From: Agrobacterium rosae
Lineage (GTDB): Bacteria; Pseudomonadota; Alphaproteobacteria; Rhizobiales; Rhizobiaceae
Reading direction: 5' to 3'
Length of the DNA: 64,000 nt
Assembly: GCF_002915175.1 (NCBI RefSeq)
Contig: NZ_NXEJ01000002.1
Location: 340,236-404,235 of the forward strand
Of the stretch, positions 49,691 through 63,004 are shown piece by piece. The notes beneath the pieces were generated by a model that had not been told where the DNA came from, ran no database searches, and saw only the letters and a program-made list of their open reading frames with translations. Position numbers and translations under genes: made by a program. The stretch's first letter is position 1. Every line of letters begins with the position of its first letter.

Positions 49691-50617
49691 CTATGCGTCG
49701 TGCAGAATGTGGGCAGCTTTGACAGCGGCAGAAGCACGATTTTCAACGCCCAACTTGACGTAAATCTGCTCCAGATGCTTGTTCACCGTGCGAGCGGATA
49801 GACCGAGAATATCGCCGATATCGCGGTTTGACTTTCCTTTGGCAATCCACAGCAACACTTCGGATTCACGGATGGTCAGCGAAAAATGCTGGCGCAACAT
49901 GGCATCGGCGGATTTATCGCTGGCAGCCGTCAGCCGAAACAGATGCTCGTCCGGCCCCATGGCACCCAGGAATGTCAGCTGCAACGTGGCGCGGTCCGCC
50001 TGTTGAATGGTCAGCGGTGCGTCCCGAAGTGCGTCGTTTCCGCGATTGGCCAGCCAGCCCGCGATGTGTTGCGTTACGATCTCGAGCCCGTCATCGCGAC
50101 CCGTTGCGGCGTTGACCAGCCGTGTCGCCTGCGGGGTTGACCAGTGGATGGCACCATTGGCGCGCACCGCCAGCAGGTGACGGCCAGCGGCATCTAGTGC
50201 CACGCGCGCGCTCTGTGCGGAACGGGCATTGGACAGGTGAACGCGGATGCGAGCGCGCAACTCATCGATATTGATCGGCTTGGTCAGATAATCGACGCCG
50301 CCGGATTCGAGCGCGCGTACGACATGCTCCGTCTCGGTCAGCCCCGTCATGAAGATGACCGGCACCTGCGTTACCGCCGCGTTGGATTTCAGCCGCGTGC
50401 AGGTTTCGAAACCATCCATGGATGGCATGACGGCATCCAGCAGGATGATATCGGGTGTAATGCGTTCGGCGATGTTGAGAGCAGACTGCCCCGAGGTGGC
50501 GATCAGCACGGAAAAGCCGGATTGCTCCAACGCATCGGTCAGGAAGCCCAGTGCGTCCGGGCTGTCATCCACCAGAAGAACGATATCCTTCGCTGGCGCG
50601 GCAGGCTGTAAGCTCAT
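49691..50617 (-). CDS. LuxR-family response regulator with extended middle region
   Basis: 308 aa. Receiver at residues 1-130 (LLVDDSP acidic cluster, phosphoacceptor D61 in IILLDAVMPSMDG, lysine in YLTKPINIDEL), a 110-residue middle region with PAS-like or sensory character (RHLLAVRANGAIHWSTPQATRLVN and RLTAASDKSADAML), and a C-terminal LuxR HTH (LLWIAKGKSNRDIGDILGLS, TVNKHLEQIYVKLGVENRA). Its ATG overlaps the stop of the giant kinase gene by 4 bases, so they are expressed together. Nitrogen-related genes nearby suggest it may regulate nitrogen metabolism; this is inference. Confidence 0.92.
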   Translation of the reverse strand: MSLQPAAPAKDIVLLVDDSPDALGFLTDALEQSGFSVLIATSGQSALNIAERITPDIILLDAVMPSMDGFETCTRLKSNAAVTQVPVIFMTGLTETEHVVRALESGGVDYLTKPINIDELRARIRVHLSNARSAQSARVALDAAGRHLLAVRANGAIHWSTPQATRLVNAATGRDDGLEIVTQHIAGWLANRGNDALRDAPLTIQQADRATLQLTFLGAMGPDEHLFRLTAASDKSADAMLRQHFSLTIRESEVLLWIAKGKSNRDIGDILGLSARTVNKHLEQIYVKLGVENRASAAVKAAHILHDA

Positions 50618-53600
50618 GGCTGACGCTCCTTGGATGGTGGGTTTTCAAAACGGCGGAGAAAAGCGGCATAACCTGCCATGTCGAAGGCCTGTACGTAACT
50701 TGTCAGTTCTTCGGTGAAGGCGATATTTTCAGATGTGCGGGCGAGATCGGCAAGCTTTGCCTCAATGCCTCTGATATAGCCGATTTCACCCAGCTGCTGC
50801 AAATCCTTGATATGCGATGGCCCCGGTGTGATGATTTCGGCCCTGGCGGGTTTGGGTGGGGTAGGGGCATCCGTCTCATAAACCCATGTCAGACCCAGAT
50901 GAACGGCGAGCTTATCGCACAGGCGGCGAATGTCGACGGGCTTGGCAATCGTGTCGTTGTGATTATCATCACCCGCACCAGCAATCGACCCGTCACCAAT
51001 ATTGGCCGAGAGCATGATGAGCGGTGCCGTCTGGCCTGCCTCGCGCAGTCTCGTTACCAGTTGCCAGCCGCTCATGCCGGGCATGGAAATGTCGATCAGA
51101 AATAGGTCGGGTTGGACGCCTTCGATGAGCGTCAGACAATCCGGGCCGCTCTGCGCCGTCAGCACGACGAAATCGAGAGGGCCGAGCACCTCGCGCATCA
51201 ATTCGCGATGATCCTCATTATCGTCAACCACGACGATGGTGCGGCGTGGGCCGGAATAGGAGACGATGGTTTTTTCCGGTGCAGGCGCGGTGCTGGGGCG
51301 ATCCACCGCCGACAGCATCAGCCGCACCTTGAATGTCGAGCCCTTGTCCTTCTCGCTGACGACGGAGATTTCACCGCCCAACGTGTTGGTCAAAAGCTGG
51401 GTGATGGTAAGCCCGAGGCCAAGGCCCGGCATGGGGCGAATGCTCTCGGCTTCGCCACGCTGAAACGGTTCGTAGATGCGGCTCAAATCCTTTTCGGCAA
51501 TGCCGCGTCCCGTATCTGAAATGGTGAAGGTCGCGACCTGGCTGCGATAGGCGACATCGAAATTGACGGTGCCAGCATCCGTGAATTTGATGGCGTTTGA
51601 TAGAAGATTGACGAGGATCTGGCGCAGGCGCTTTTCGTCGGTACGGACATATTGCGGCAAGGCGCGGGTGCGCTCATGCAACAATTCCAGCCCCTTTGCC
51701 TGCGCCTGTGGACGGAAAAGATCGATGATCTGGTCGAGGAAGTCCTGAATGTTGATTTCGTTGGAATAAACCTGCAAGCGGCCCGCTTCGATCTTTGAAA
51801 TATCCAGCAGGCCATCGATCAGTCCCGACAGGTGGTCGGCGGAGCGGCGAATGACCTTGATGGCGGATTGGCGCGGCTGCGGGATCGTTTCGTCGCGCTC
51901 GAGGATTTGCGCATAGCCGAGAACGGCATTCAGCGGCGTGCGCAATTCGTGGCTGAGGCCGACGACGTAACGGCTTTTCGCGCGGTTGGCAGCTTCCGCT
52001 GTGTCCTTGGCGTTCTGAAGTGCGGCGTCCGTCTTTTTATGAGCGGCAATTTCCTTAAGCAGCAGCGTGTTCTGTCGCGACGATTCCTCCTCGGCCACGA
52101 CGCGGCTGTCATGGGCGAGCACCAGAAACCAGCAGACGATACCGGCGATGACGGCGAAGACGAAGAAGACGGCAAGGATGGTGCGATTGACCACATCCAC
52201 TGTCGCGGGGGAGGCGGTGCCGACCTGATGGGCGATCAGTGCCAGCGTTGCGCCCAAGACGATGATGGCCAGCGCCGCCGACATGGCGTAGCGTCCCAGC
52301 CTAGTGGCGAGCCGGGCCACCAGATCATTCGGCAAGAACGTGCGCGCGACGGTGGCGACCTGATAATTCAGCTTGGCCTTTGGCTTGCACATATCGTGGC
52401 ATCGGCTGTCCAGCGAGCAGCAGAGCGAACAGATCGGCGCAGCATAGGCCGGGCACCACGCCATGTCTTCCGGCTCGAACGGATGTTCGCAGATGGAGCA
52501 GGTGATGCTGCTTTCATGCTTCCACTTCTGTCGTGGTTTGCGTGCCAGATAGAACTTGCCCTTCGTGCCCCAGGCGAGCAGTGGCGACACGGTGAAGGCG
52601 ATAACCAATGTGAGGTAAGGCGCAAGCGATGCAGCAAGGCTGCCGAACAGGCCGAAATGAGCTGTCAGCGCAACCGTCGCCGACAGCGCCATGGTGCCGA
52701 CGCCGACGGGGTTGATATCGTAGAGATGCGCGCGTTTGAATTCTATGCCCGGCGGCGCAAGGCCGAGTGGTTTGTTGATGAAAAGGTCAGCTGAGATGGT
52801 GCACAGCCACGCCATGGCGATGATGGAGAAGATGCCGAGCGTTTCTTCCAGCAGCCGGTATATGCCGAGTTCCATCAACAGCAGCGCGATCAGCACGTTG
52901 AAGACGAGCCAGACGACGCGGCCGGGGTGGCTGTGGGTGAGGCGTGAGAAGAAATTCGACCATGCCAGCGATCCGGCATAGGCGTTCATGACGTTGATCT
53001 TCAACTGTGAGACCACCACGAAGGCGACCATCAGCAACAGTGCTGCATTCTGGTTCGGGATCATATAGCCGAAGGCGGTGAGATACATTTGCGAGGGGTC
53101 GGCGGCGCGGTCTACGGGAACGCTGGAGCTGAAGGTCAGCACCACGAGGAAGGAGCCTGCCAGAAGTTTCGGTACGCCGACCAGAACCCAGCCGGCCCCG
53201 GCGAGAAACACGGCAAAGCGATGCCGTAGCTTCAGCTTGCCCTCGGCGGGCAGGAAGCGCAGGAAATCCACCTGCTCCCCGATCTGCGACATCAGCGCCA
53301 GAATGACGGCAGAGGCAGCGCCGAACTCGATCAGATTGAAATCGGCCGTCGTTCCGGGCCGGCCTGAAGCGTGATGGATCCCGGCAAAGGCCCGCCACAG
53401 GTCGAATTTCTCCCAGTCCAGAAACGCGATGAAGATGAAGGGCAGGACGTTGAGAACGATCCAGAATGGCTGGGTGATGATCTGAAAGCGGCTGATGAGC
53501 CGCACACCGTGGGTGACGAGCGGAATGACCATGATGGCCGAGATGATGTAGCCAATCCATAGGGGTATGCCGAGCGCCAGTTCCAGCGCGCCGGACATGA

Positions 53601-54006
53601 TCGATGCCTCGATGGCAAACAGCATGAAGGTGAAGGCGGCGTAGATCAGCGAGGTGATGGTGGAGCCGATATAGCCGAAGCTTGCGCCACGGGTCAGAAG
53701 ATCGATATCGACTCCGTAGCGAATGGCATAGCGGCTGATTGGCACGCCCACGGCCAGCATGACGGAGGCAGCGACGAGAATGGCGAAGAATGCGTTTGTC
53801 GTGCCGTAGGAGAGGGTGATCGCGCCGCCGATGGCTTCGAGCGCCAGAAAGGAAATTGCGCCGATGGCGGTGTGAGAGATACGGCTGGAGGAGAATTGTC
53901 GGGCGCTTTTGGCGGTAAAGCGCAGCGCATAATCTTCCAGCGTCTGGTTGGCGACCCAGCGGTTATATTCGCGCCTGACGGGGATGATGCGTTGCCGTGC
54001 GGCCAT
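50614..54006 (-). CDS. NCS1-permease / histidine kinase / receiver fusion sensor
   Basis: 1130 aa, minus strand. Residues about 40-490: twelve or more membrane helices resembling NCS1 (purine/cytosine permease) transporters. Residues 503-540: eight Cys in a C-x2-C-x11-C-x7-C-x2-CC-x5-C-x3-C pattern, which may bind zinc or act as a redox switch. Residues about 570-650: two further helices. HisKA with H686 in LSHELRTPLNAVLGYA, HATPase with NLLSNAIKFTDAG, then receiver with D972 in FLIDISMPGMSG, and a short C-terminal tail of helices. The first gene of a two-gene operon with the LuxR regulator. Transporter-kinase fusions such as CbrA (SSS family) are known sensors; an NCS1 version is rare. Its ligand is not shown by sequence; nearby urea and glutamine genes make a nitrogenous base or allantoin-like ligand plausible. 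Confidence 0.93.
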   Translation of the reverse strand: MAARQRIIPVRREYNRWVANQTLEDYALRFTAKSARQFSSSRISHTAIGAISFLALEAIGGAITLSYGTTNAFFAILVAASVMLAVGVPISRYAIRYGVDIDLLTRGASFGYIGSTITSLIYAAFTFMLFAIEASIMSGALELALGIPLWIGYIISAIMVIPLVTHGVRLISRFQIITQPFWIVLNVLPFIFIAFLDWEKFDLWRAFAGIHHASGRPGTTADFNLIEFGAASAVILALMSQIGEQVDFLRFLPAEGKLKLRHRFAVFLAGAGWVLVGVPKLLAGSFLVVLTFSSSVPVDRAADPSQMYLTAFGYMIPNQNAALLLMVAFVVVSQLKINVMNAYAGSLAWSNFFSRLTHSHPGRVVWLVFNVLIALLLMELGIYRLLEETLGIFSIIAMAWLCTISADLFINKPLGLAPPGIEFKRAHLYDINPVGVGTMALSATVALTAHFGLFGSLAASLAPYLTLVIAFTVSPLLAWGTKGKFYLARKPRQKWKHESSITCSICEHPFEPEDMAWCPAYAAPICSLCCSLDSRCHDMCKPKAKLNYQVATVARTFLPNDLVARLATRLGRYAMSAALAIIVLGATLALIAHQVGTASPATVDVVNRTILAVFFVFAVIAGIVCWFLVLAHDSRVVAEEESSRQNTLLLKEIAAHKKTDAALQNAKDTAEAANRAKSRYVVGLSHELRTPLNAVLGYAQILERDETIPQPRQSAIKVIRRSADHLSGLIDGLLDISKIEAGRLQVYSNEINIQDFLDQIIDLFRPQAQAKGLELLHERTRALPQYVRTDEKRLRQILVNLLSNAIKFTDAGTVNFDVAYRSQVATFTISDTGRGIAEKDLSRIYEPFQRGEAESIRPMPGLGLGLTITQLLTNTLGGEISVVSEKDKGSTFKVRLMLSAVDRPSTAPAPEKTIVSYSGPRRTIVVVDDNEDHRELMREVLGPLDFVVLTAQSGPDCLTLIEGVQPDLFLIDISMPGMSGWQLVTRLREAGQTAPLIMLSANIGDGSIAGAGDDNHNDTIAKPVDIRRLCDKLAVHLGLTWVYETDAPTPPKPARAEIITPGPSHIKDLQQLGEIGYIRGIEAKLADLARTSENIAFTEELTSYVQAFDMAGYAAFLRRFENPPSKERQP

Positions 54007-54100: not shown

Positions 54101-54871
54101 TTAAAGGCGGACCGACATGCCGCCATCCACAGTCAAGACGTGGCCATTGACGAAAGAGGCGGCGTCACTGGCCAGAAACAGGGCCGCACCGGCAATTTCA
54201 TCCGGTTTTCCCCAGCGCTCCAGGGGTACACGCAGCTTGGCGAAAGCCAGCATATCCGGGTCTTCCGCAAGGGCGGCATTGGTTTCCGTGGCGAACATGC
54301 CGGGTGCGATGGCATTGCTGGTAATGCCGCGCGCGCCATATTCCACAGCGATGCTGCGCATCAATCCGGTCAGACCCTGCTTGGCGACGGGGTAGATCGC
54401 ATCGCCTGGCCTCACAACATGGCCGAGAATAGAGGTGATGGTGATGATACGCCCGTAGCCGTTTGCGTTCATGGCTTCGGCTGCATCCCGCGAAAGGCAA
54501 ATGGAGGAGGTGAGGTCGGTGCGGATGAGATCCAGCACGTCATCGTCTTGGAAGTCACAGAGTGGGCGGCGGTCTCGTGCGCCGACATTGTTGACGAGAA
54601 TATCGAGGTGCCCGGCCTCTTTCATGATGTGGCGAACGAGGTCGCTGCCAGCGGCAGTGTCGGCAATATCGAAGGCGGCATAATCCGCTTTCCCGCCGGC
54701 TTTACGAAGGTTGTCGACTGATTTTTCCAGCGTTTCGGCATTGCGCCCGGTCAGCCAGACATGGGCTCCTGCCTCCGTAAAGGCCTTGGCAATTTCAAAG
54801 CCGAGGCCCCGCCCGCTGCCGGTAATGATGGCCGTGCGGTTTTCCAACGAAAATTTTTGGAGAATGCCCAT
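54101..54871 (-). CDS. SDR family oxidoreductase
   Basis: 256 aa short-chain dehydrogenase. Cofactor motif TGSGRGLGFEIA at residue 18, NNVGARD (N-N-x-G), catalytic Ser in TITSILGHV and Y-x3-K in AIYPVAKQG. Similar to gluconate 5-dehydrogenase and 3-ketoacyl-ACP reductase; substrate unknown. On the same strand as the sensor kinase downstream, with a 94-base gap. Confidence 0.9.
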   Translation of the reverse strand: MGILQKFSLENRTAIITGSGRGLGFEIAKAFTEAGAHVWLTGRNAETLEKSVDNLRKAGGKADYAAFDIADTAAGSDLVRHIMKEAGHLDILVNNVGARDRRPLCDFQDDDVLDLIRTDLTSSICLSRDAAEAMNANGYGRIITITSILGHVVRPGDAIYPVAKQGLTGLMRSIAVEYGARGITSNAIAPGMFATETNAALAEDPDMLAFAKLRVPLERWGKPDEIAGAALFLASDAASFVNGHVLTVDGGMSVRL

Positions 54872-56226: not shown

Positions 56227-56546
56227 TCGAGAGCAAAAAATGCGTGGAAAGCCCAGCGTTGCGAATTTGAAAAATCGTGCAATTTCCGATGCTTTTGCAG
56301 GGGCAGACGCTATTTTTGGTCAAAAATGATGCCGTTTTGGTGTGTGAGCTCAATTTTCCCGCAAAAACTCTGCGGTTTGGGTCGATATCTGCATAAAGAC
56401 TGTTCTTTAGATCAAACTGATTATGTGTCGCCTATTTTTTAGGCTTATTGATATTTTTTTAATCAGATGGGGTGCTTTTCAGCTTTTTTGAGAGTATATT
56501 CCAAGTGAAGCAACAATGCCGGGTATTCAACGAAAGAGTGAATGTC

Positions 56547-56747
56547 ATGAGAAGCGAACCGCATATGGAAAGCGCAACCATCTACCAGTTTCCCGTCGGC
56601 GGCCGTTCAGGCTTTAAGGGACTGCGCAACGATGCCATTTTGAACGGTCCTTCGGTCACAGCGCCGAAGACGCATATCGATTTCGATAGCTGGTATCATC
56701 AGGAAGCGATCCTCGAAAATTCTGATACTGACAAGCCGCACAATTGA
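56547..56747 (+). CDS. gstI: GstI-like peptide (DUF2735), likely translational inhibitor of glnII
   Basis: 66 aa. MESATIYQFPVGGRSGF is the DUF2735 signature and DFDSWYHQEAI is a conserved acidic/aromatic tail. In Rhizobium leguminosarum the gstI gene lies divergent to glnII, makes a 63-residue peptide and blocks glnII mRNA translation when nitrogen is plentiful. Position, orientation and length here match. The ATG at 56547 begins the family sequence; the longer frame from 56472 adds 25 residues without similarity. Confidence 0.85.
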   Translation: MRSEPHMESATIYQFPVGGRSGFKGLRNDAILNGPSVTAPKTHIDFDSWYHQEAILENSDTDKPHN

Positions 56748-56829: not shown

Positions 56830-56845
56830 TACGTCAATTGACGTA
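56830..56845. promoter_or_regulatory. Perfect palindrome upstream of urtA
   Basis: TACGTCAATTGACGTA, a perfect 16-base dyad, 95 bases before the urtA ATG. It looks like an operator for a dimeric regulator. It contains TTGACG, a possible -35, but no -10 follows at normal spacing. No known site was matched. Confidence 0.6.
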
Positions 56846-56939: not shown

Positions 56940-58229
56940 ATGACTTTCAAGAAGATGCTGACCGGCGCTTTGCTCGGTGCCATTTTATCCACCACCGCAT
57001 TCCACGGTGCTTTTGCCGCTGACGATACGATCAAGATCGGCGTTCTGCATTCGCTTTCCGGCACTATGGCGATTTCCGAAACGACATTGAAAGATGCCAT
57101 GTTGATGCTCATCGATGAGCAGAACAAGAAAGGTGGCGTTCTCGGCAAGAAGCTCGAAGCCGTCGTGGTCGATCCGGCCTCCGACTGGCCGCTTTTTGCT
57201 GAAAAAGCCCGTCAGCTGATTAGCCAGGATAAGGTCGCTGCCGTTTTCGGTTGCTGGACCTCGTCTTCACGCAAATCCGTTCTGCCGGTTTTTGAGGAGC
57301 TGAACTCCATCCTCTTCTACCCCGTGCAATATGAGGGTGAAGAATCCTCGCGCAACATTTTCTACACCGGTGCTGCTCCCAACCAGCAGGCCATTCCAGC
57401 GGTGGATTACCTAGCAAGCACCGAAGGCGTGGAGCGCTGGGTTCTGGCTGGCACCGACTATGTCTACCCACAGACGACCAACAAGATCCTCAAGGCCTAT
57501 CTGGAATCTAAGGGCGTGAAGCCGGAAGACATCATGGTCAACTACACGCCATTCGGCCACTCCGATTGGCAGACCATCGTCTCCGACATCAAGAAGTTCG
57601 GCTCTGCCGGCAAGAAGACCGCCGTCGTTTCCACCATCAATGGTGATGCCAACGTGCCATTCTACAAGGAACTGGCAAACCAGGGCGTGAAGGCTGAAGA
57701 CATTCCAGTTGTCGCCTTCTCCGTGGGTGAAGAAGAGCTCGCCGGTCTCGATACCGGCCCGCTGGTCGGCCACCTTGCCGCCTGGAACTACTTCCAGTCC
57801 GTTGACAGCCCTGTGAATGCCGAGTTCATCAAGGAATGGCACGCCTTTACGAAAAACGACAAGCGCGTGACCAATGACCCGATGGAAGCCGCCTATATCG
57901 GCTTCAATGCATGGGTTAAGGCTGTTGAAGCCGCTGGCACGACAGAAACCGACAAGGTGCTGGACTCGATCATCGGCGTTTCGGTTCCAAACCTATCCGG
58001 CGGTTACGCCACCGTCATGCCGAACCACCACATCACCAAGCCGGTGCTGATCGGCGAAATCCAGTCGGACGGCCAGTTCGAAATTGTGCAGCAGACGGCG
58101 CAGGTCGTGGGTGACGAGTGGTCGGATTATTTGCCGGACTCGAAAGACCTGATCTCCGATTGGCGCAAGCCGATGTCGTGCGGCAACTTCAATGTCGCTA
58201 CGGGTAAGTGCGGCGGTAAGGGGATGTAA
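56940..58229 (+). CDS. urtA: Urea ABC transporter, binding protein UrtA
   Basis: 429 aa. Signal peptide MTFKKMLTGALLGAILSTTA to HGAFA. Type I binding protein of the urea/short-chain-amide class: IKIGVLHSLSGTMAISETTL, GCWTSSSRKSVLPVFEEL, LNSILFYPVQYEGEESSRN and a C-terminal DWRKPMSCGNFNVATGKCGG. RBS GGAGAGGGG precedes the ATG. First gene of urtABCDE; the next gene is 333 bases away across repeats. Confidence 0.96.
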   Translation: MTFKKMLTGALLGAILSTTAFHGAFAADDTIKIGVLHSLSGTMAISETTLKDAMLMLIDEQNKKGGVLGKKLEAVVVDPASDWPLFAEKARQLISQDKVAAVFGCWTSSSRKSVLPVFEELNSILFYPVQYEGEESSRNIFYTGAAPNQQAIPAVDYLASTEGVERWVLAGTDYVYPQTTNKILKAYLESKGVKPEDIMVNYTPFGHSDWQTIVSDIKKFGSAGKKTAVVSTINGDANVPFYKELANQGVKAEDIPVVAFSVGEEELAGLDTGPLVGHLAAWNYFQSVDSPVNAEFIKEWHAFTKNDKRVTNDPMEAAYIGFNAWVKAVEAAGTTETDKVLDSIIGVSVPNLSGGYATVMPNHHITKPVLIGEIQSDGQFEIVQQTAQVVGDEWSDYLPDSKDLISDWRKPMSCGNFNVATGKCGGKGM

Positions 58230-58562: not shown

Positions 58563-60179
58563 ATGACGATCCGATTTCTTCTTCGAGCCATGTTTCTATG
58601 GCTGACGCTTGGGATCGCCGCTCCGTCCTTTGCCCAGCAGAGTGACCCCAAAGCGCTGATCGATGCGCTCGGTACCGCAGATTTCAAGCAGGCCGAAACC
58701 CTCACCGGGCAGATTGCCGCAACCGGAGACCCACGTGTTGTACCCGCGCTGGAAGCTTATGCTGAGGGTGATCTCTACGTCCGCAAGGCCGACAATCTGG
58801 TTTTCATGGCCAAAGCCGCTGGGGCCAATTTCACGCTGATCGATCCTTTGACGGGTGCCAGTGCCGGCGAGGTGTCAAAGGCTGCCGTGACCAAGATCAG
58901 GGTCAACAACAATCTTCGCCGGGTCATTCGCGCAGCCCTTGGTGGCTTGACGCTGCTCAGCCCTGACAAATCCGTTCGCCTTTCTGCCGCCGATGCCGTT
59001 TTGAAAGCGCCGAGTGCCGAAAACCTGCAATTGCTCGAGGCGGCTCTTGCCAAGGAAACGGACGCGCAGGTGCGCACCCGCATGGAAGAAGCGCGTGCCG
59101 TTTCGTTGCTGGCCTCCGATCGTTCCATCGACGAAAAGCGCGCCGCCATCGAGACCATCAAGAGCCTGGGTGGGCGTGGTGCCATTAGCATTCTAATGGC
59201 GGCTGCGCCTGTTACCGATGCCAGCCTGAAACCCGATGTCGATGCCGCGATCTCCCACATTGAAAGCACTTTAGCGCTTTGGGATGCCGCGCAGAACATC
59301 TGGTATGGCCTGTCGCTGGGTTCCGTACTGCTGCTGGCGGCCATCGGCCTTGCCATTACCTTCGGCGTTATGGGCATCATCAACATGGCGCATGGCGAAA
59401 TGGTGATGATCGGGGCTTATTCCACTTTCATGGTGCAGGAGGTGATCCGCAACAATTACCCTGTGATGTTCGACTGGTCGCTGACCATTGCGCTGCCGGT
59501 GGCGTTTCTGGTCACGGGTGCTGTCGGCTTGGTGATGGAACGCGGCGTCATCCGCTTTCTCTATGGCCGTCCGCTGGAAACACTGTTGGCAACATGGGGC
59601 ATCTCGCTTATTCTCCAGCAGGGCGTGCGCTCAATCTTTGGCCCGACCAACCGTGAGGTCGGAAATCCCAGCTGGATGTCTGGTTCTTTCAGCGTCGGTT
59701 ACCTAAACTTCACCTGGAACCGTGTCTGGATCGTCTGCTTCTCGCTGTCGGTGTTTTTCGCGCTGCTTCTGCTCCTGAAACGCTCTGCTTTCGGCCTGCA
59801 AATGCGCGCCGTGACGCAGAACCGGCGCATGGCATCGTCCATGGGTATTCGCACGCCGTGGGTGGATGCTTTCACCTTCGCACTGGGGTCCGGTGTAGCC
59901 GGTTTGGCTGGGGTGGCGCTTTCGCAGATCGACAATGTCTCGCCCAATCTCGGCCAGTCCTACATCATCGATAGCTTCATGGTGGTGGTGTTCGGTGGCG
60001 TCGGCAATCTCTGGGGCACCTTTGTCGGTGCGCTGACACTCGGTGTGCTCAACAAGTTCCTTGAACCCACCGTTGGCGCGGTTCTCGGCAAAATTCTCGT
60101 CCTCGTCCTCATCATCCTGTTCATCCAGAAGCGGCCACGCGGTCTCTTCGCACTCAAGGGAAGGGCGATCGAAGCATGA
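58563..60179 (+). CDS. urtB: Urea ABC transporter, permease UrtB
   Basis: 538 aa. Signal peptide (MTIRFLLRAMFLWLTLGIAA to SFAQ), then about 210 residues of periplasmic helical repeats (LSPDKSVRLSAADAVLKAPS), the extension usual for UrtB. The LivH-type permease begins near residue 238 (WYGLSLGSVLLLAAIGLAIT, IINMAHGEMVMIGAYS). It ends in an ATGA overlap with urtC. Preceded by GAGGAG about 4 bases before the ATG. Confidence 0.95.
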   Translation: MTIRFLLRAMFLWLTLGIAAPSFAQQSDPKALIDALGTADFKQAETLTGQIAATGDPRVVPALEAYAEGDLYVRKADNLVFMAKAAGANFTLIDPLTGASAGEVSKAAVTKIRVNNNLRRVIRAALGGLTLLSPDKSVRLSAADAVLKAPSAENLQLLEAALAKETDAQVRTRMEEARAVSLLASDRSIDEKRAAIETIKSLGGRGAISILMAAAPVTDASLKPDVDAAISHIESTLALWDAAQNIWYGLSLGSVLLLAAIGLAITFGVMGIINMAHGEMVMIGAYSTFMVQEVIRNNYPVMFDWSLTIALPVAFLVTGAVGLVMERGVIRFLYGRPLETLLATWGISLILQQGVRSIFGPTNREVGNPSWMSGSFSVGYLNFTWNRVWIVCFSLSVFFALLLLLKRSAFGLQMRAVTQNRRMASSMGIRTPWVDAFTFALGSGVAGLAGVALSQIDNVSPNLGQSYIIDSFMVVVFGGVGNLWGTFVGALTLGVLNKFLEPTVGAVLGKILVLVLIILFIQKRPRGLFALKGRAIEA

Positions 60180-61327
60180 TTACCGGCTTCCTCCTTCGCG
60201 CGCTCGACCGCCGCATCTCCATCGCCATCGGCATCATTCTGGCCATCGCACTGCTCGTGCCCGCGTCCAATTTGCTGCTTCCCGCAGACAGCGCTTTCCG
60301 CATTCCGACCTACATCATGTCGATGCTGGGCAAGTATCTGTCCTATGCCATTCTGGCGCTGGCGCTTGATCTGGTGTGGGGATATTGCGGCATTCTTTCG
60401 CTCGGCCATGCCGCCTTCTTCGCGCTCGGTGGTTATGCCATGGGCATGTATCTGATGCGGCAGATCGGCACGCGCGGAACCTACGGCCATCCCATTCTGC
60501 CTGACTTCATGGTGTTTCTGAACTGGAAGGAACTGCCGTGGTTCTGGCATGGGTTCGACATGTTCTGGTTTGCCATGCTGATGGTGCTGGTCGTGCCCGG
60601 TCTGCTTGCCTTTGTGTTCGGCTGGCTCGCTTTTCGCTCCCGCGTCAACGGCGTTTATCTCTCCATCATCACCCAGGCTATGACCTATGCGCTGTTGCTC
60701 GCCTTTTTCCGCAATGACATGGGCTTCGGCGGTAATAACGGCCTGACGGATTTTAAGGATATTCTCGGCTTTTCCGTGCAGGCGGATGGTACGCGCGCAG
60801 TTCTGTTTGCGATGACGGCCATCATGCTGGCTGTATGCCTGCTGATCGCGTCTGGCATCGTCAATTCCAAATTCGGCAAGGTGCTGGTGGGTGTGCGGGA
60901 TGCGGAAAGCCGTGTTCGCTTCCTGGGTTTCCGGGTGGAAAACATCAAGCTCTTCACCTTCGTCGTCTCGGCCATGATGGCAGGCATTGCCGGCGCATTG
61001 TTCGTGCCGCAGGTGGGCATCATCAACCCCGGTGAATTTTCGCCTGCCAACTCCATCGAAGTCGTGGTGTGGACGGCAGTCGGCGGGCGCGGAACTTTGA
61101 TCGGGCCGATCCTCGGCGCGATCCTGGTCAATGGCGGCAAGAGCTATTTCACCGGCGCGTTTCCCGAGTTCTGGCTGTTTGCGCTGGGCGGGCTGTTCAT
61201 TGCGGTGACGCTGTTTTTTCCCAAGGGCATTGTCGGCACCGTGCAGCACTATATGGCAGGACGGCGTGAAAAGCGGCAGGTGGCGTCTGCTGACGCTGCC
61301 AAGACGGCGCAACAGGCAGCGGAGTAA
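60176..61327 (+). CDS. urtC: Urea ABC transporter, permease UrtC
   Basis: 383 aa, LivM-type permease. Core GYCGILSLGHAAFFALGGYA and VRDAESRVRFLGFRVENIKL (EAA loop), with about nine membrane helices. Four-base overlap with urtB and 5-base gap to urtD. Confidence 0.95.
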   Translation: MITGFLLRALDRRISIAIGIILAIALLVPASNLLLPADSAFRIPTYIMSMLGKYLSYAILALALDLVWGYCGILSLGHAAFFALGGYAMGMYLMRQIGTRGTYGHPILPDFMVFLNWKELPWFWHGFDMFWFAMLMVLVVPGLLAFVFGWLAFRSRVNGVYLSIITQAMTYALLLAFFRNDMGFGGNNGLTDFKDILGFSVQADGTRAVLFAMTAIMLAVCLLIASGIVNSKFGKVLVGVRDAESRVRFLGFRVENIKLFTFVVSAMMAGIAGALFVPQVGIINPGEFSPANSIEVVVWTAVGGRGTLIGPILGAILVNGGKSYFTGAFPEFWLFALGGLFIAVTLFFPKGIVGTVQHYMAGRREKRQVASADAAKTAQQAAE

Positions 61328-61332
61328 CGGCT

Positions 61333-62094
61333 ATGAACACGGTTTCTGAAAACAGAACGAAAAGCCTGCTCTATCTGGACGGCGTGTCTGTCTCCTTTGA
61401 TGGTTTCAAGGCGCTCAATTCGCTGTCTTTCGTGGTCGAGCCGGGTGAGCTGCGCGCCATCATCGGCCCCAATGGTGCCGGCAAGACGACGATGATGGAC
61501 ATCATCACCGGCAAGACGCGGCCCAACAGCGGCACGGTGCTGTTTGAAGACAGCATCGACCTCACCAAAAAGGACGAGGCGGATATCGCCCAGCTCGGCA
61601 TCGGCCGGAAATTCCAGAAGCCGACGGTGTTTGAGAGCCACACCGTGTGGGACAACCTGGAACTGGCGCTGAACCGCAAACGTGGGGTCTTTGCCACGCT
61701 CTTCTATCAGCTGACGAAGGACGACAAGGCGCGCATCGAGGAAATCCTCGCCACCGTACGCCTCGGTCATCGCCGCGATGCACTCGCGGCCAATCTTTCG
61801 CATGGTCAAAAGCAATGGCTTGAGATCGGCATGCTGCTGGCGCAGGAGCCAAAGCTGCTTCTGGTCGATGAGCCCGTGGCTGGCATGACGGATGCAGAAA
61901 CGGCGGAGACGGCAGTGCTGCTCAAGGAAATCGCCAAGACCCGCTCCGTAGTGGTGGTCGAACACGACATGGGCTTCATTCGTGATCTCGGCGTCAAGGT
62001 GACATGTCTGGCCGAGGGATCGGTGCTCGCCGAGGGGTCGATCGATTTCGTGTCGAACGACCCAAAGGTCATCGAGAATTATTTGGGGCGATGA
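61333..62094 (+). CDS. urtD: Urea ABC transporter, ATPase UrtD
   Basis: 253 aa, LivG-type ATPase. Walker A GPNGAGKTTMMD, ALAANLSHGQKQWLEIGMLL as the signature region (an LSHGQ variant of LSGGQ) and Walker B LLLVDEPVAGMTDAET. The variant signature is normal in UrtD. Separated from urtE by a 215-base repeat-bearing gap. Confidence 0.95.
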   Translation: MNTVSENRTKSLLYLDGVSVSFDGFKALNSLSFVVEPGELRAIIGPNGAGKTTMMDIITGKTRPNSGTVLFEDSIDLTKKDEADIAQLGIGRKFQKPTVFESHTVWDNLELALNRKRGVFATLFYQLTKDDKARIEEILATVRLGHRRDALAANLSHGQKQWLEIGMLLAQEPKLLLVDEPVAGMTDAETAETAVLLKEIAKTRSVVVVEHDMGFIRDLGVKVTCLAEGSVLAEGSIDFVSNDPKVIENYLGR

Positions 62095-62117
62095 TGGGAA
62101 ACGCAGTGGTCTTGGTG

Positions 62118-62271
62118 CCCCCATCTGCCCTGCCGGGCATCTCCCCCACAGGTGGGGAGATCGGCAAGACGATGGCGCGACATATTATCTGCGACGTTCA
62201 AGATGGACGAGAGGCTGCCACTTGCCAATCTCCCCACCTGTGGGGGAGATGCCCGGCAGGGCAGAGGGGGG
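62118..62271. repeat. Palindromic intergenic repeat between urtD and urtE
   Basis: Two 51-base arms (62118-62168 and 62221-62271) are inverted copies, with only a few mismatches; the spacer of 52 bases has no gene. The arms include GCCGGGCATCTCCCCCACA and its reverse complement. A large hairpin could form in the polycistronic mRNA. The arm family also occurs before urtB. Confidence 0.85.
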
Positions 62272-62308
62272 TGAGCCACACCCATGATACCACAATGGGA
62301 GCGACATC

Positions 62309-63004
62309 ATGCTAAGCGTTGACAACATCAATCTCCATTACGGAGCAGCGCAGGCTTTGCGCGGCATTTCGTTGAACGCGGAAATGGGCAAGATCACCTG
62401 TGTGCTGGGTCGCAACGGTGTCGGTAAAAGCTCTTTGTTGCGGGCCGTGACCGGCCAGCACGCAACAAGTGGCGGAACGATCAGCTTCGGCGGCGAAAGT
62501 CTCAATGGCCTTGCGCCTTACCAACGCGCAAAGCGTGGTGTTGGCTATGTGCCGCAGGGGCGGGAAATCTTTCCGCTTTTGACCGTGCAGGAAAACCTGG
62601 AATCGGGCTATGCGCCGTTGCCGCGCAAGGAACGTTTCATTCCCGATGATATCTTCAGCCTGTTTCCCGTGCTGCAATCCATGTTGTCGCGAAGAGGCGG
62701 GGACCTATCCGGCGGGCAACAGCAACAGCTGGCCATCGGTCGCGCGCTGGTCACGCGGCCGAAAATTCTCGTGCTGGACGAGCCGACGGAAGGCATTCAG
62801 CCTTCGATTATCAAGGATATCGGCCGGGCGATCAAATATTTGCGGGATTCGACGGGCATGGCGATCCTACTGGTCGAACAATATCTGGATTTCTGCCGCG
62901 AGCTTGCAGATTACGTCTACATCATGGATCGCGGTGAGATCGTTCACCAGGGTCTGGCCGAAACGCTGGATACGCCGGAGGCACGACGGCACCTGACGGT
63001 GTGA
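62309..63004 (+). CDS. urtE: Urea ABC transporter, ATPase UrtE
   Basis: 231 aa, LivF-type ATPase. Walker A GRNGVGKSSLLRA, signature GGDLSGGQQQQLAIGRALV and Walker B LVLDEPTEGIQPSI. Last gene of the operon. Start ATG at 62309 has GGGAGC upstream. The repeat before it may reduce or delay its expression relative to urtD. Confidence 0.95.
   Translation: MLSVDNINLHYGAAQALRGISLNAEMGKITCVLGRNGVGKSSLLRAVTGQHATSGGTISFGGESLNGLAPYQRAKRGVGYVPQGREIFPLLTVQENLESGYAPLPRKERFIPDDIFSLFPVLQSMLSRRGGDLSGGQQQQLAIGRALVTRPKILVLDEPTEGIQPSIIKDIGRAIKYLRDSTGMAILLVEQYLDFCRELADYVYIMDRGEIVHQGLAETLDTPEARRHLTV

What the first reader, a model, noticed from the sequence alone, without database searches (positions are those of the whole stretch)
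49691..54006. Two-gene operon of an NCS1-transporter/kinase/receiver fusion and a LuxR response regulator
One 1130-residue protein joins a full NCS1-like permease, an eight-cysteine segment, HisKA/HATPase and a receiver, and overlaps by 4 bases with a LuxR-type regulator that carries its own receiver and a middle sensory-like region. Transporter-kinase fusions are known mainly from the SSS family (CbrA), so an NCS1-type receptor with this partner is a good candidate for a little-studied nitrogen-source sensing system. The urea transporter, GSII and GstI genes follow within 10 kb. Ligand and targets are unknown.
Basis: partly seen in the sequence, partly recalled or inferred. Interest (0 to 1): 0.82.

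Follow-up and report, generated by a model that had tools for sequence, protein, structure and literature searches.

The report
Predicted urea-sensing transporter-kinase pair
Two neighbouring genes encode a sensor built from a membrane permease fused to a kinase, plus its DNA-binding partner; their neighbours in many bacteria and a conserved DNA palindrome suggest that they sense urea (or formamide in relatives) and switch on the genes that take it up.

Summary
In detail: a 1130-aa permease-Cys8-HisKA/HATPase-REC protein (50614-54006, -) overlaps by 4 bp a 308-aa REC-LuxR regulator. The permease part is a remote NCS1 relative: no Pfam or PDB hit by itself, but a profile-profile match to NCS1 and none to sodium symporters. 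Of 80 diverse kinase loci, 74 lie beside urt, urease or formamidase genes and 77 keep the LuxR partner; 80 of 80 rhizobial loci have urtABC close by. Stand-alone copies of the permease occur with urease genes (Klebsiella, Acinetobacter) and formamidase or amidase genes, though 4 of 13 examined do not. De novo search found a palindrome TACG-N8-CGTA before the partner operons; the window has a perfect copy, TACGTCAATTGACGTA, 94 bp before urtA (80 of 80 rhizobial loci have one). It is absent from 20 of 20 urtA promoters sampled in genomes without the kinase and from 19 of 20 remote urtA promoters; 25 of 80 diverse loci also lack it. Best reading: a transceptor-like urea sensor that activates urtABCDE and urease genes. 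Ligand, polarity and phosphotransfer are inferred. Ten open-access searches found no functional study. New variant of a known kind, working like CrbS/CrbR.

The parts
50614..54006 (-). transporter-like hybrid histidine kinase, 1130 aa
   Evidence: relatives
52537..53949 (-). NCS1-like permease domain, about residues 20-490
   Evidence: profile-profile match to NCS1 over residues 102-495; hydropathy
52387..52500 (-). eight-cysteine segment, residues 503-540; C503, C506, C526 and C529 invariant in 47 aligned sequences, one of them a stand-alone permease; some actinobacterial stand-alone copies lack most of them
52093..52299 (-). two predicted membrane segments after the Cys segment, residues 570-638
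   Evidence: hydropathy
51313..51978 (-). HisKA and HATPase_c, residues 677-898
50908..51237 (-). receiver domain of the kinase, residues 924-1033
49691..50617 (-). REC-LuxR response regulator, 308 aa, overlaps the kinase gene by 4 bp; recognition region SARTVNKHLE at residue 274
56830..56845 (.). perfect palindrome TACGTCAATTGACGTA, predicted operator of the response regulator
56940..58229 (+). urtA, urea ABC transporter substrate-binding protein; predicted first gene of the target operon
   Evidence: TIGR03407 561.9 bits, cut-off 492.75
58563..63004 (+). urtB (58563-60179), urtC (60176-61327), urtD (61333-62094), urtE (62309-63004)
   Evidence: ORFs; 71-86% identical to genes annotated urtB-E in Shinella
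54101..54871 (-). SDR oxidoreductase, 94 bp ahead of the kinase gene on the same strand; lineage-specific neighbour

Best explanation
The kinase is a receptor descended from an NCS1-like urea/short-amide permease. Urea occupies the permease site; the conformational change passes through the cytoplasmic, zinc-ribbon-like Cys segment and two extra helices to HisKA/HATPase. Phosphate goes from His to the kinase's own receiver and/or the LuxR partner. The phosphorylated LuxR dimer binds the 16-bp palindrome at 56830-56845 and activates urtABCDE, probably with the urease genes that follow. In relatives the same receptor type serves formamide/short amides (urt-fmdA-fmdB operons). Shown here by sequence: architecture, NCS1 kinship, linkage, palindrome and its specificity controls. 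Inferred: urea as direct ligand, activation rather than repression, phosphate route, role of the Cys segment. Open: whether the domain still transports.
For: Context: 74 of 80 kinase loci have, within the stretch taken, fmdA (47), urease, urea-type urt (10) or other urt; 6 have none, 2 of those at contig ends. LuxR partner directly downstream in 77 of 80. Rhizobial loci: 80 of 80 with urtABC within 9 kb (best 80 of 561). Own genome: matches to ureD, A, C, E, G follow urtE just past the window. Reciprocal: urtA in 51 of 52 genomes with the kinase, 120 of 346 without. Stand-alone permeases with urease genes in Klebsiella and Acinetobacter, beside fmdA in Moraxella and Tsukamurella, beside an amidase in Arthrobacter U41, divergent from the kinase in A. 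baumannii. Operator: exact dyad in 31 of 60 upstream regions, top dyad at most 8 in 20 shuffles; 80 of 80 rhizobial urtA promoters, first base 102-119 bp before urtA, background 4 of 4121 tiles; 55 of 80 diverse loci, background 9 of 3754 tiles; 0 of 20 urtA promoters from kinase-less genomes, 1 of 20 remote urtA promoters. Motif and recognition helix vary together: 49 of 65 with RTxxKH have it, 1 of 7 with ATxKKH/NTxNAH (106).
Against: 25 of 80 diverse loci lack an exact motif, among them 10 of 14 urease-context ones; some have near forms, several score no better than shuffles. Allowing one mismatch the pattern is not enriched in the window, 13 against 9.4 expected, and the genome has three exact places against 10 for the reversed control. 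4 loci in two genera have no marker neighbours on full stretches; 3 of the 4 do carry the palindrome. 4 of 13 stand-alone loci have no such neighbour. Hydantoinase-type genes lie near in 2 of 80 loci. Context cannot separate direct urea sensing from sensing of a product or of nitrogen state. No structure could be predicted. Counts are not phylogenetically independent.
Confidence: 0.7

Rival explanations
1. The pair controls urtABCDE through the palindrome, but the signal is not urea at the permease site: it is ammonium, pH or nitrogen state, with the permease domain as a general membrane sensor.
For: Urea operons are commonly nitrogen-controlled (recalled); a glutamine synthetase gene lies between the kinase and urtA in 22 of 80 rhizobial loci. 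Context alone cannot identify a ligand.
Against: Nine of 13 stand-alone permease loci sit with urease, formamidase or amidase genes or face the kinase, so the domain itself points to urea and amides. The motif is missing from 19 of 20 remote urtA promoters of kinase-bearing genomes, unlike a general nitrogen signal.
Confidence: 0.15
2. The protein is mainly a working transporter whose flux is reported by the attached kinase (a true transceptor); signalling depends on transport. This can hold together with the best explanation.
For: The permease core is 38-48% identical to a stand-alone member; the SLC5 domain of CbrA is reported to take up histidine (PMC13022988, passages).
Against: Residue 57, in the first predicted membrane segment, is Glu in 74 of 74 kinases of the tree set but Phe or Gln in the 9 stand-alone copies, which hints at altered function. 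61 or more of the 80 loci already encode an urt-type transporter.
Confidence: 0.3
3. The ligand in this genome is formamide or another short amide rather than urea.
For: 47 of 80 relatives lie near fmdA; the urea/amide label needs 7 changes on the tree, so specificity may be loose.
Against: The window's clade has urea-type urtA and urease genes; 0 of 80 rhizobial maps show fmdA within 9 kb of the kinase (markers above 55% identity).
Confidence: 0.12
4. The palindrome belongs to another regulator of urea genes and the kinase pair is only a neighbour.
For: The motif was found by computation only; binding is untested; 25 of 80 loci lack an exact copy.
Against: 0 of 20 urtA promoters where the kinase is missing and 1 of 20 remote ones have it; it varies with the recognition helix; it lies between kinase and permease in A. 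baumannii, where no urtA marker was found in the 17.6-kb stretch.
Confidence: 0.07

Closest known systems
CrbS/CrbR (SLC5-STAC hybrid kinase and LuxR regulator, acetate) and RpuS/RpuR (pyruvate)
   Same: Transporter-derived membrane receptor, hybrid kinase with receiver, LuxR partner, a repeat in the target promoter that is needed for activation (PMC5715377 and PMC9100948, passages)
   Different: Receptor is NCS1-like, not SLC5; a Cys segment and two helices between receptor and kinase; urea/amide genes as neighbours; different operator
CbrA/CbrB (SLC5-STAC, histidine)
   Same: Transceptor idea: substrate site in a transporter fold drives a kinase (PMC13022988, passages)
   Different: No receiver in the domain list read; different transporter family and linker
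Ks-Amt5 (ammonium transporter fused to a kinase)
   Same: Nitrogen-compound permease turned into a kinase receptor (PMC5764959, passages)
   Different: Amt fold, trimeric; its response regulator is not identified (PMC12918730, passage)
NCS1 permeases (PF02133)
   Same: Remote homology along residues 102-495
   Different: No PF02133 hit by itself; carries a Cys segment; neighbours are mostly urea/amide genes
UreR, AraC-type urea-responsive activator of urease (recalled, not searched)
   Same: Urea-dependent activation of urea genes
   Different: One-component regulator, unrelated (recalled)

Membership tests
NCS1 permeases (PF02133) | Direct match to the PF02133 profile | tested here: not met
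   No family at E<=10; 5 of 6 further relatives have no PF02133 hit at E<=1, only the bridging L221 does, 36.4 bits
NCS1 permeases (PF02133) | Homology detectable by profile-profile comparison | tested here: met
   hhalign probability 92.8%, E 4e-7, 97 columns and 97.5%, E 6e-12, 351 columns (that query includes two bridging proteins); shuffled control 0.03% and 0.1%
NCS1 permeases (PF02133) | Mhp1-like fold | not testable with these tools
   Structure prediction switched off; no PDB hit by profile at E<=1
NCS1 permeases (PF02133) | Transport activity | not testable with these tools
   Needs a bench assay
SLC5/STAC histidine kinases | SLC5 (SSS, PF00474) domain | tested here: not met
   hhalign against nine SSS proteins 0.9% and 3.6%; no Pfam hit
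SLC5/STAC histidine kinases | STAC domain | tested here: inconclusive
   No Pfam match between the permease and HisKA; whether that library holds STAC was not checked
SLC5/STAC histidine kinases | Hybrid kinase with LuxR-type partner (CrbS and RpuS members) | tested here: met
Amt-kinase fusions (Ks-Amt5) | Amt domain | tested here: not met
   No ammonium transporter family among Pfam hits
Hybrid two-component systems | HisKA, HATPase and receiver domains with catalytic residues, and a regulator gene beside it | tested here: met
Hybrid two-component systems | Phosphotransfer between the two proteins | not testable with these tools
   Needs purified proteins

The most novel reading that the evidence does not exclude
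A widespread, unnamed class of transceptor-type kinases that sense urea or short-chain amides directly with an NCS1-like fold, that switched between urea and formamide operons several times (7 label changes on one quick tree), and that is sister to an uncharacterised NCS1-like urea/amide permease family found in urease gene clusters such as that of Klebsiella.
Probability: 0.55. Interest if true: 0.78.

Novelty: new variant of a known kind. Interest (0 to 1): 0.65.

Why it matters
Urea is a major nitrogen source in soil and hosts, and how bacteria sense it outside the cell is, as far as I know, poorly understood. This gives a candidate receptor, a partner, a target operon and a 16-bp operator, so urea sensing becomes directly testable in ordinary laboratory rhizobia. 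It would add NCS1 to the transporter families recruited as kinase receptors and would suggest a new permease type for urea and small amides. The system is also common on Klebsiella plasmids (342 of 530 plasmid records with a match).

Tried and rejected
Direct Pfam and PDB searches for the permease part gave nothing relevant. PDB search with the bridging protein L221 gave one hit, to an AMP-dependent synthetase, taken as chance. SSS kinship was tested and rejected. A scan for residues that follow the urea/amide label in six urea lineages gave only three columns with five or more lineages changed, out of 273; judged inconclusive because urea branches are longer. Eight neighbours of two loci without urea/amide markers gave no informative Pfam families. 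Sigma-70 and terminator scans around urtA were at chance level. GrtK/GrtR of Burkholderia glumae was considered and dropped: different domains. The idea that the Acinetobacter stand-alone permease is a decayed kinase was dropped: it is 60-75% identical to copies in Klebsiella, Moraxella and actinobacteria, and no kinase marker matched in its locus. Hydantoinase-type genes as the typical neighbours were tested and rejected, 2 of 80 and 0 of 80 loci.

Rows left out: from the 20-kb stretches, L221-L224 (stand-alone, distant or unconfirmed matches) are not in the 80 kinase loci; L230, L231 and L276, fetched later, are not in the 80 either, but are in the tree. The tree leaves out ten near-identical or cut rows. 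One search used 60 of 79 upstream regions, near-duplicates, cut loci and short kinases dropped by hand. Stand-alone copies: 12 of the 17 records listed at 59.9% identity or more were fetched, plus the Methylovirgula copy. The control promoters were picked by me from the long list, mostly those most like the window's urtA.

Full report
WHAT IS THERE. Two ORFs on the minus strand are intact: 50614-54006 (1130 aa) and 49691-50617 (308 aa), overlapping by 4 bp. Pfam gives HisKA, HATPase_c and a receiver in the first, and a receiver and GerE (LuxR) in the second. Eight cysteines lie at residues 503-540; phospho-acceptor and receiver motifs are present in both proteins. Hydropathy suggests a multi-helix permease up to about residue 480, then the Cys segment, then two further membrane segments at 570-638 before the kinase.

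IS IT NCS1? The first 644 residues hit no Pfam family at E up to 10 and no relevant PDB chain; a profile of 47 relatives hits no PDB chain at E up to 1. The bridging stand-alone protein L221 matches the query (E 6e-28) and PF02133 above its cut-off (36.4 against 23.5 bits). Profile-profile comparison with 26 NCS1 proteins gave 92.8% (E 4e-7, 97 columns) and, with a wider alignment of 85 rows that includes two bridging proteins, 97.5% over 351 columns (E 6e-12). Against nine sodium-symporter proteins it gave 0.9% and 3.6%, against a column-shuffled NCS1 alignment 0.03% and 0.1%. So: a remote NCS1 relative, not an SLC5 receptor.

DISTRIBUTION. Relatives occur in 20 of 289 genomes of the class and 56 of 398 of the phylum. 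A stricter search with the Klebsiella stand-alone permease found 52 of 398, and all 57 matches lie in frames of 894-1365 aa, kinase size. 530 of 72,556 plasmid records hold a relative, 342 of them Klebsiella; 307 of the 530 are typed conjugative, so by arithmetic at least 119 Klebsiella records are; the one I opened, L109, is typed non-mobilizable, and some 'plasmid' records are of chromosome size.

NEIGHBOURS. Of 80 kinase loci, 47 have fmdA, 14 urease, 10 urea-type urt without urease in reach, 3 another urt, 6 none; two of the six are at contig ends (L173, L220), the other four are in two genera (L158, L160, L161; L164). 77 of 80 have the LuxR partner directly downstream, 69 overlapping by predicted starts; the three exceptions are short kinases of 873-885 aa, with no match to the window's receiver (a weak test). 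Among the best 80 of 561 loci from named genomes, all rhizobial (13 titled only 'Rhizobiales bacterium'), 80 of 80 have urtABC within 9 kb and 80 of 80 the partner; in 58 no marker gene lies between urtA and the kinase, in 22 a GSII gene does, in 16 of these with an SDR gene, as in the window. Just past the window, matches to ureD, A, C, E and G follow urtE. In the 398 genomes urtA (E<=1e-40) is found in 51 of 52 with the kinase and 120 of 346 without; Fisher p 5e-20, not corrected for relatedness. Hydantoinase-type genes are near in 2 of 80 diverse and 0 of 80 rhizobial loci, and beside the distant Rhodococcus relative L118. An annotation of one such pair beside urtABCDE is already in print for Ectopseudomonas (PMC13296017, passages), without function. 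Formamide uptake by an urt-fmdA cluster has been proposed (PMC13209695, passages).

STAND-ALONE PERMEASES. A 535-560 aa form of the permease forms one clade (SH-aLRT 98, nine rows); some members carry the Cys segment, three actinobacterial ones lack most of its cysteines. I looked at 13 such loci: urease genes in Klebsiella (two) and Acinetobacter (two), fmdA in Moraxella and Tsukamurella, an aliphatic amidase in Arthrobacter U41, divergent from the kinase in A. baumannii and next to kinase, fmdA and amidase in Methylovirgula; four have no such neighbour (two Streptomyces, two Arthrobacter). So the domain, not only the operon, points to urea and short amides. Residue 57 is Glu in 74 of 74 kinases of the tree set and Phe or Gln in the nine stand-alone copies, a possible mark of the receptor state.

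TREE. On a tree of 85 permease domains (quick method, SH-aLRT) the context label urea versus amide needs 7 changes; the window sits in a fully supported clade of six rhizobial rows with urea-type context. This suggests that receptors of one family were re-tuned between urea and amides several times. A search for the residues responsible was inconclusive.

OPERATOR. Counting inverted repeats in 330 bp before 60 kinase genes (of 79, near-duplicates and cut or short loci dropped) gave TACG-N8-CGTA in 31 of 60; the top dyad reached at most 8 in 20 shuffles. The window holds a perfect copy, TACGTCAATTGACGTA, at 56830-56845, 94 bp before urtA and far from the kinase gene. With one mismatch allowed the pattern is not enriched in the window (13 found, 9.4 expected; three exact). 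TACGYMNNNNKRCGTA fits three places in the whole genome (reversed control 10): before urtA, inside a 702-aa ORF, and just before a 142-aa ORF. In the rhizobial set 80 of 80 urtA promoters have exactly one exact site, first base 102-119 bp before urtA, against 4 of 4121 other 400-bp tiles. In the 80 diverse loci 55 have a site in up to three 400-bp regions each, against 9 of 3754 single tiles: fmdA 37 of 47, urea-type urt 8 of 10, other urt 2 of 3, urease 4 of 14, no marker 4 of 6. Controls: 0 of 20 urtA promoters in genomes without the kinase, 1 of 20 remote urtA promoters in genomes with it; the 40 were picked from the list. It is also absent from the Klebsiella chromosomal-type and Acinetobacter plasmid permease loci, which have no kinase, and present between kinase and permease in A. 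baumannii. Against: the 25 loci without it; some have near forms, several score no better than shuffles. These often carry a changed recognition helix: 49 of 65 regulators with RTxxKH have the site, 1 of 7 with ATxKKH or NTxNAH, and 5 of 5 that my pattern did not parse. Five of the seven are in one clade of the tree, and 15 RTxNKH loci also lack it.

HOW IT PROBABLY WORKS. Urea binds the permease-like domain; movement reaches HisKA through the Cys segment and two helices; phosphate reaches the LuxR protein, perhaps through the kinase's own receiver; the LuxR dimer binds the palindrome and raises urtABCDE and the following urease genes. The ligand, the sign of the response and the phosphate route are inference. 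CrbS/CrbR offers a tested precedent for the same logic: an inverted repeat needed for activation by the LuxR partner of a transporter-type hybrid kinase (PMC5715377, passages).

LITERATURE. Ten full-text searches of an open-access library showed no functional study of this family in their listings; subscription papers are not covered, so 'unstudied' is not proven. Passages were read in PMC13209695, PMC13296017, PMC8467165, PMC13022988, PMC11633122, PMC12918730 (abstract too), PMC5764959, PMC9100948, PMC8552645 and PMC5715377; none whole. PMC8467165, PMC11633122 and PMC8552645 gave nothing used here.

Noticed in passing
L109 8909-19264; The kinase, its partner, urtABCDE and a formamidase gene ride on a Klebsiella pKPN3-type plasmid, with insertion sequences on both sides; 342 of 530 plasmid records with a match are Klebsiella.
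   Followed up: partly
L225 7956-9563; L277 7956-9563: The Klebsiella urease cluster ends in a permease annotated 'cytosine permease' that belongs to this urea/amide family; the annotation is probably wrong.
   Followed up: partly
window 56472-56747: DUF2735 (GstI-like) ORF between GSII and urtA; the palindrome lies between it and urtA.
   Followed up: no
L217, L218, L114: Short kinases of 873-885 aa without a LuxR partner call, beside fmdA and an AmiS/UreI gene; in L114 separate response regulator genes follow.
   Followed up: partly
L231 3379-9611: In A. baumannii the kinase-regulator pair faces a stand-alone permease with a palindrome between them and no urtA marker.
   Followed up: partly
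window 53836-53838 (-), residue 57 of the kinase: Glu57 in the first membrane segment is in 74 of 74 kinases and none of nine stand-alone permeases of the tree set.
   Followed up: no
L158, L160, L161: One genus keeps the pair and an exact palindrome but shows no urea or amide marker nearby; in L158 the nearest upstream ORF on the other strand has APH and AAA_33 matches.
   Followed up: partly
L115 20519-24372; L118 3906-7794: Hydantoinase/oxoprolinase genes lie near the pair in Shinella and beside the distant Rhodococcus permease; seen in 2 of 80 diverse loci.
   Followed up: partly
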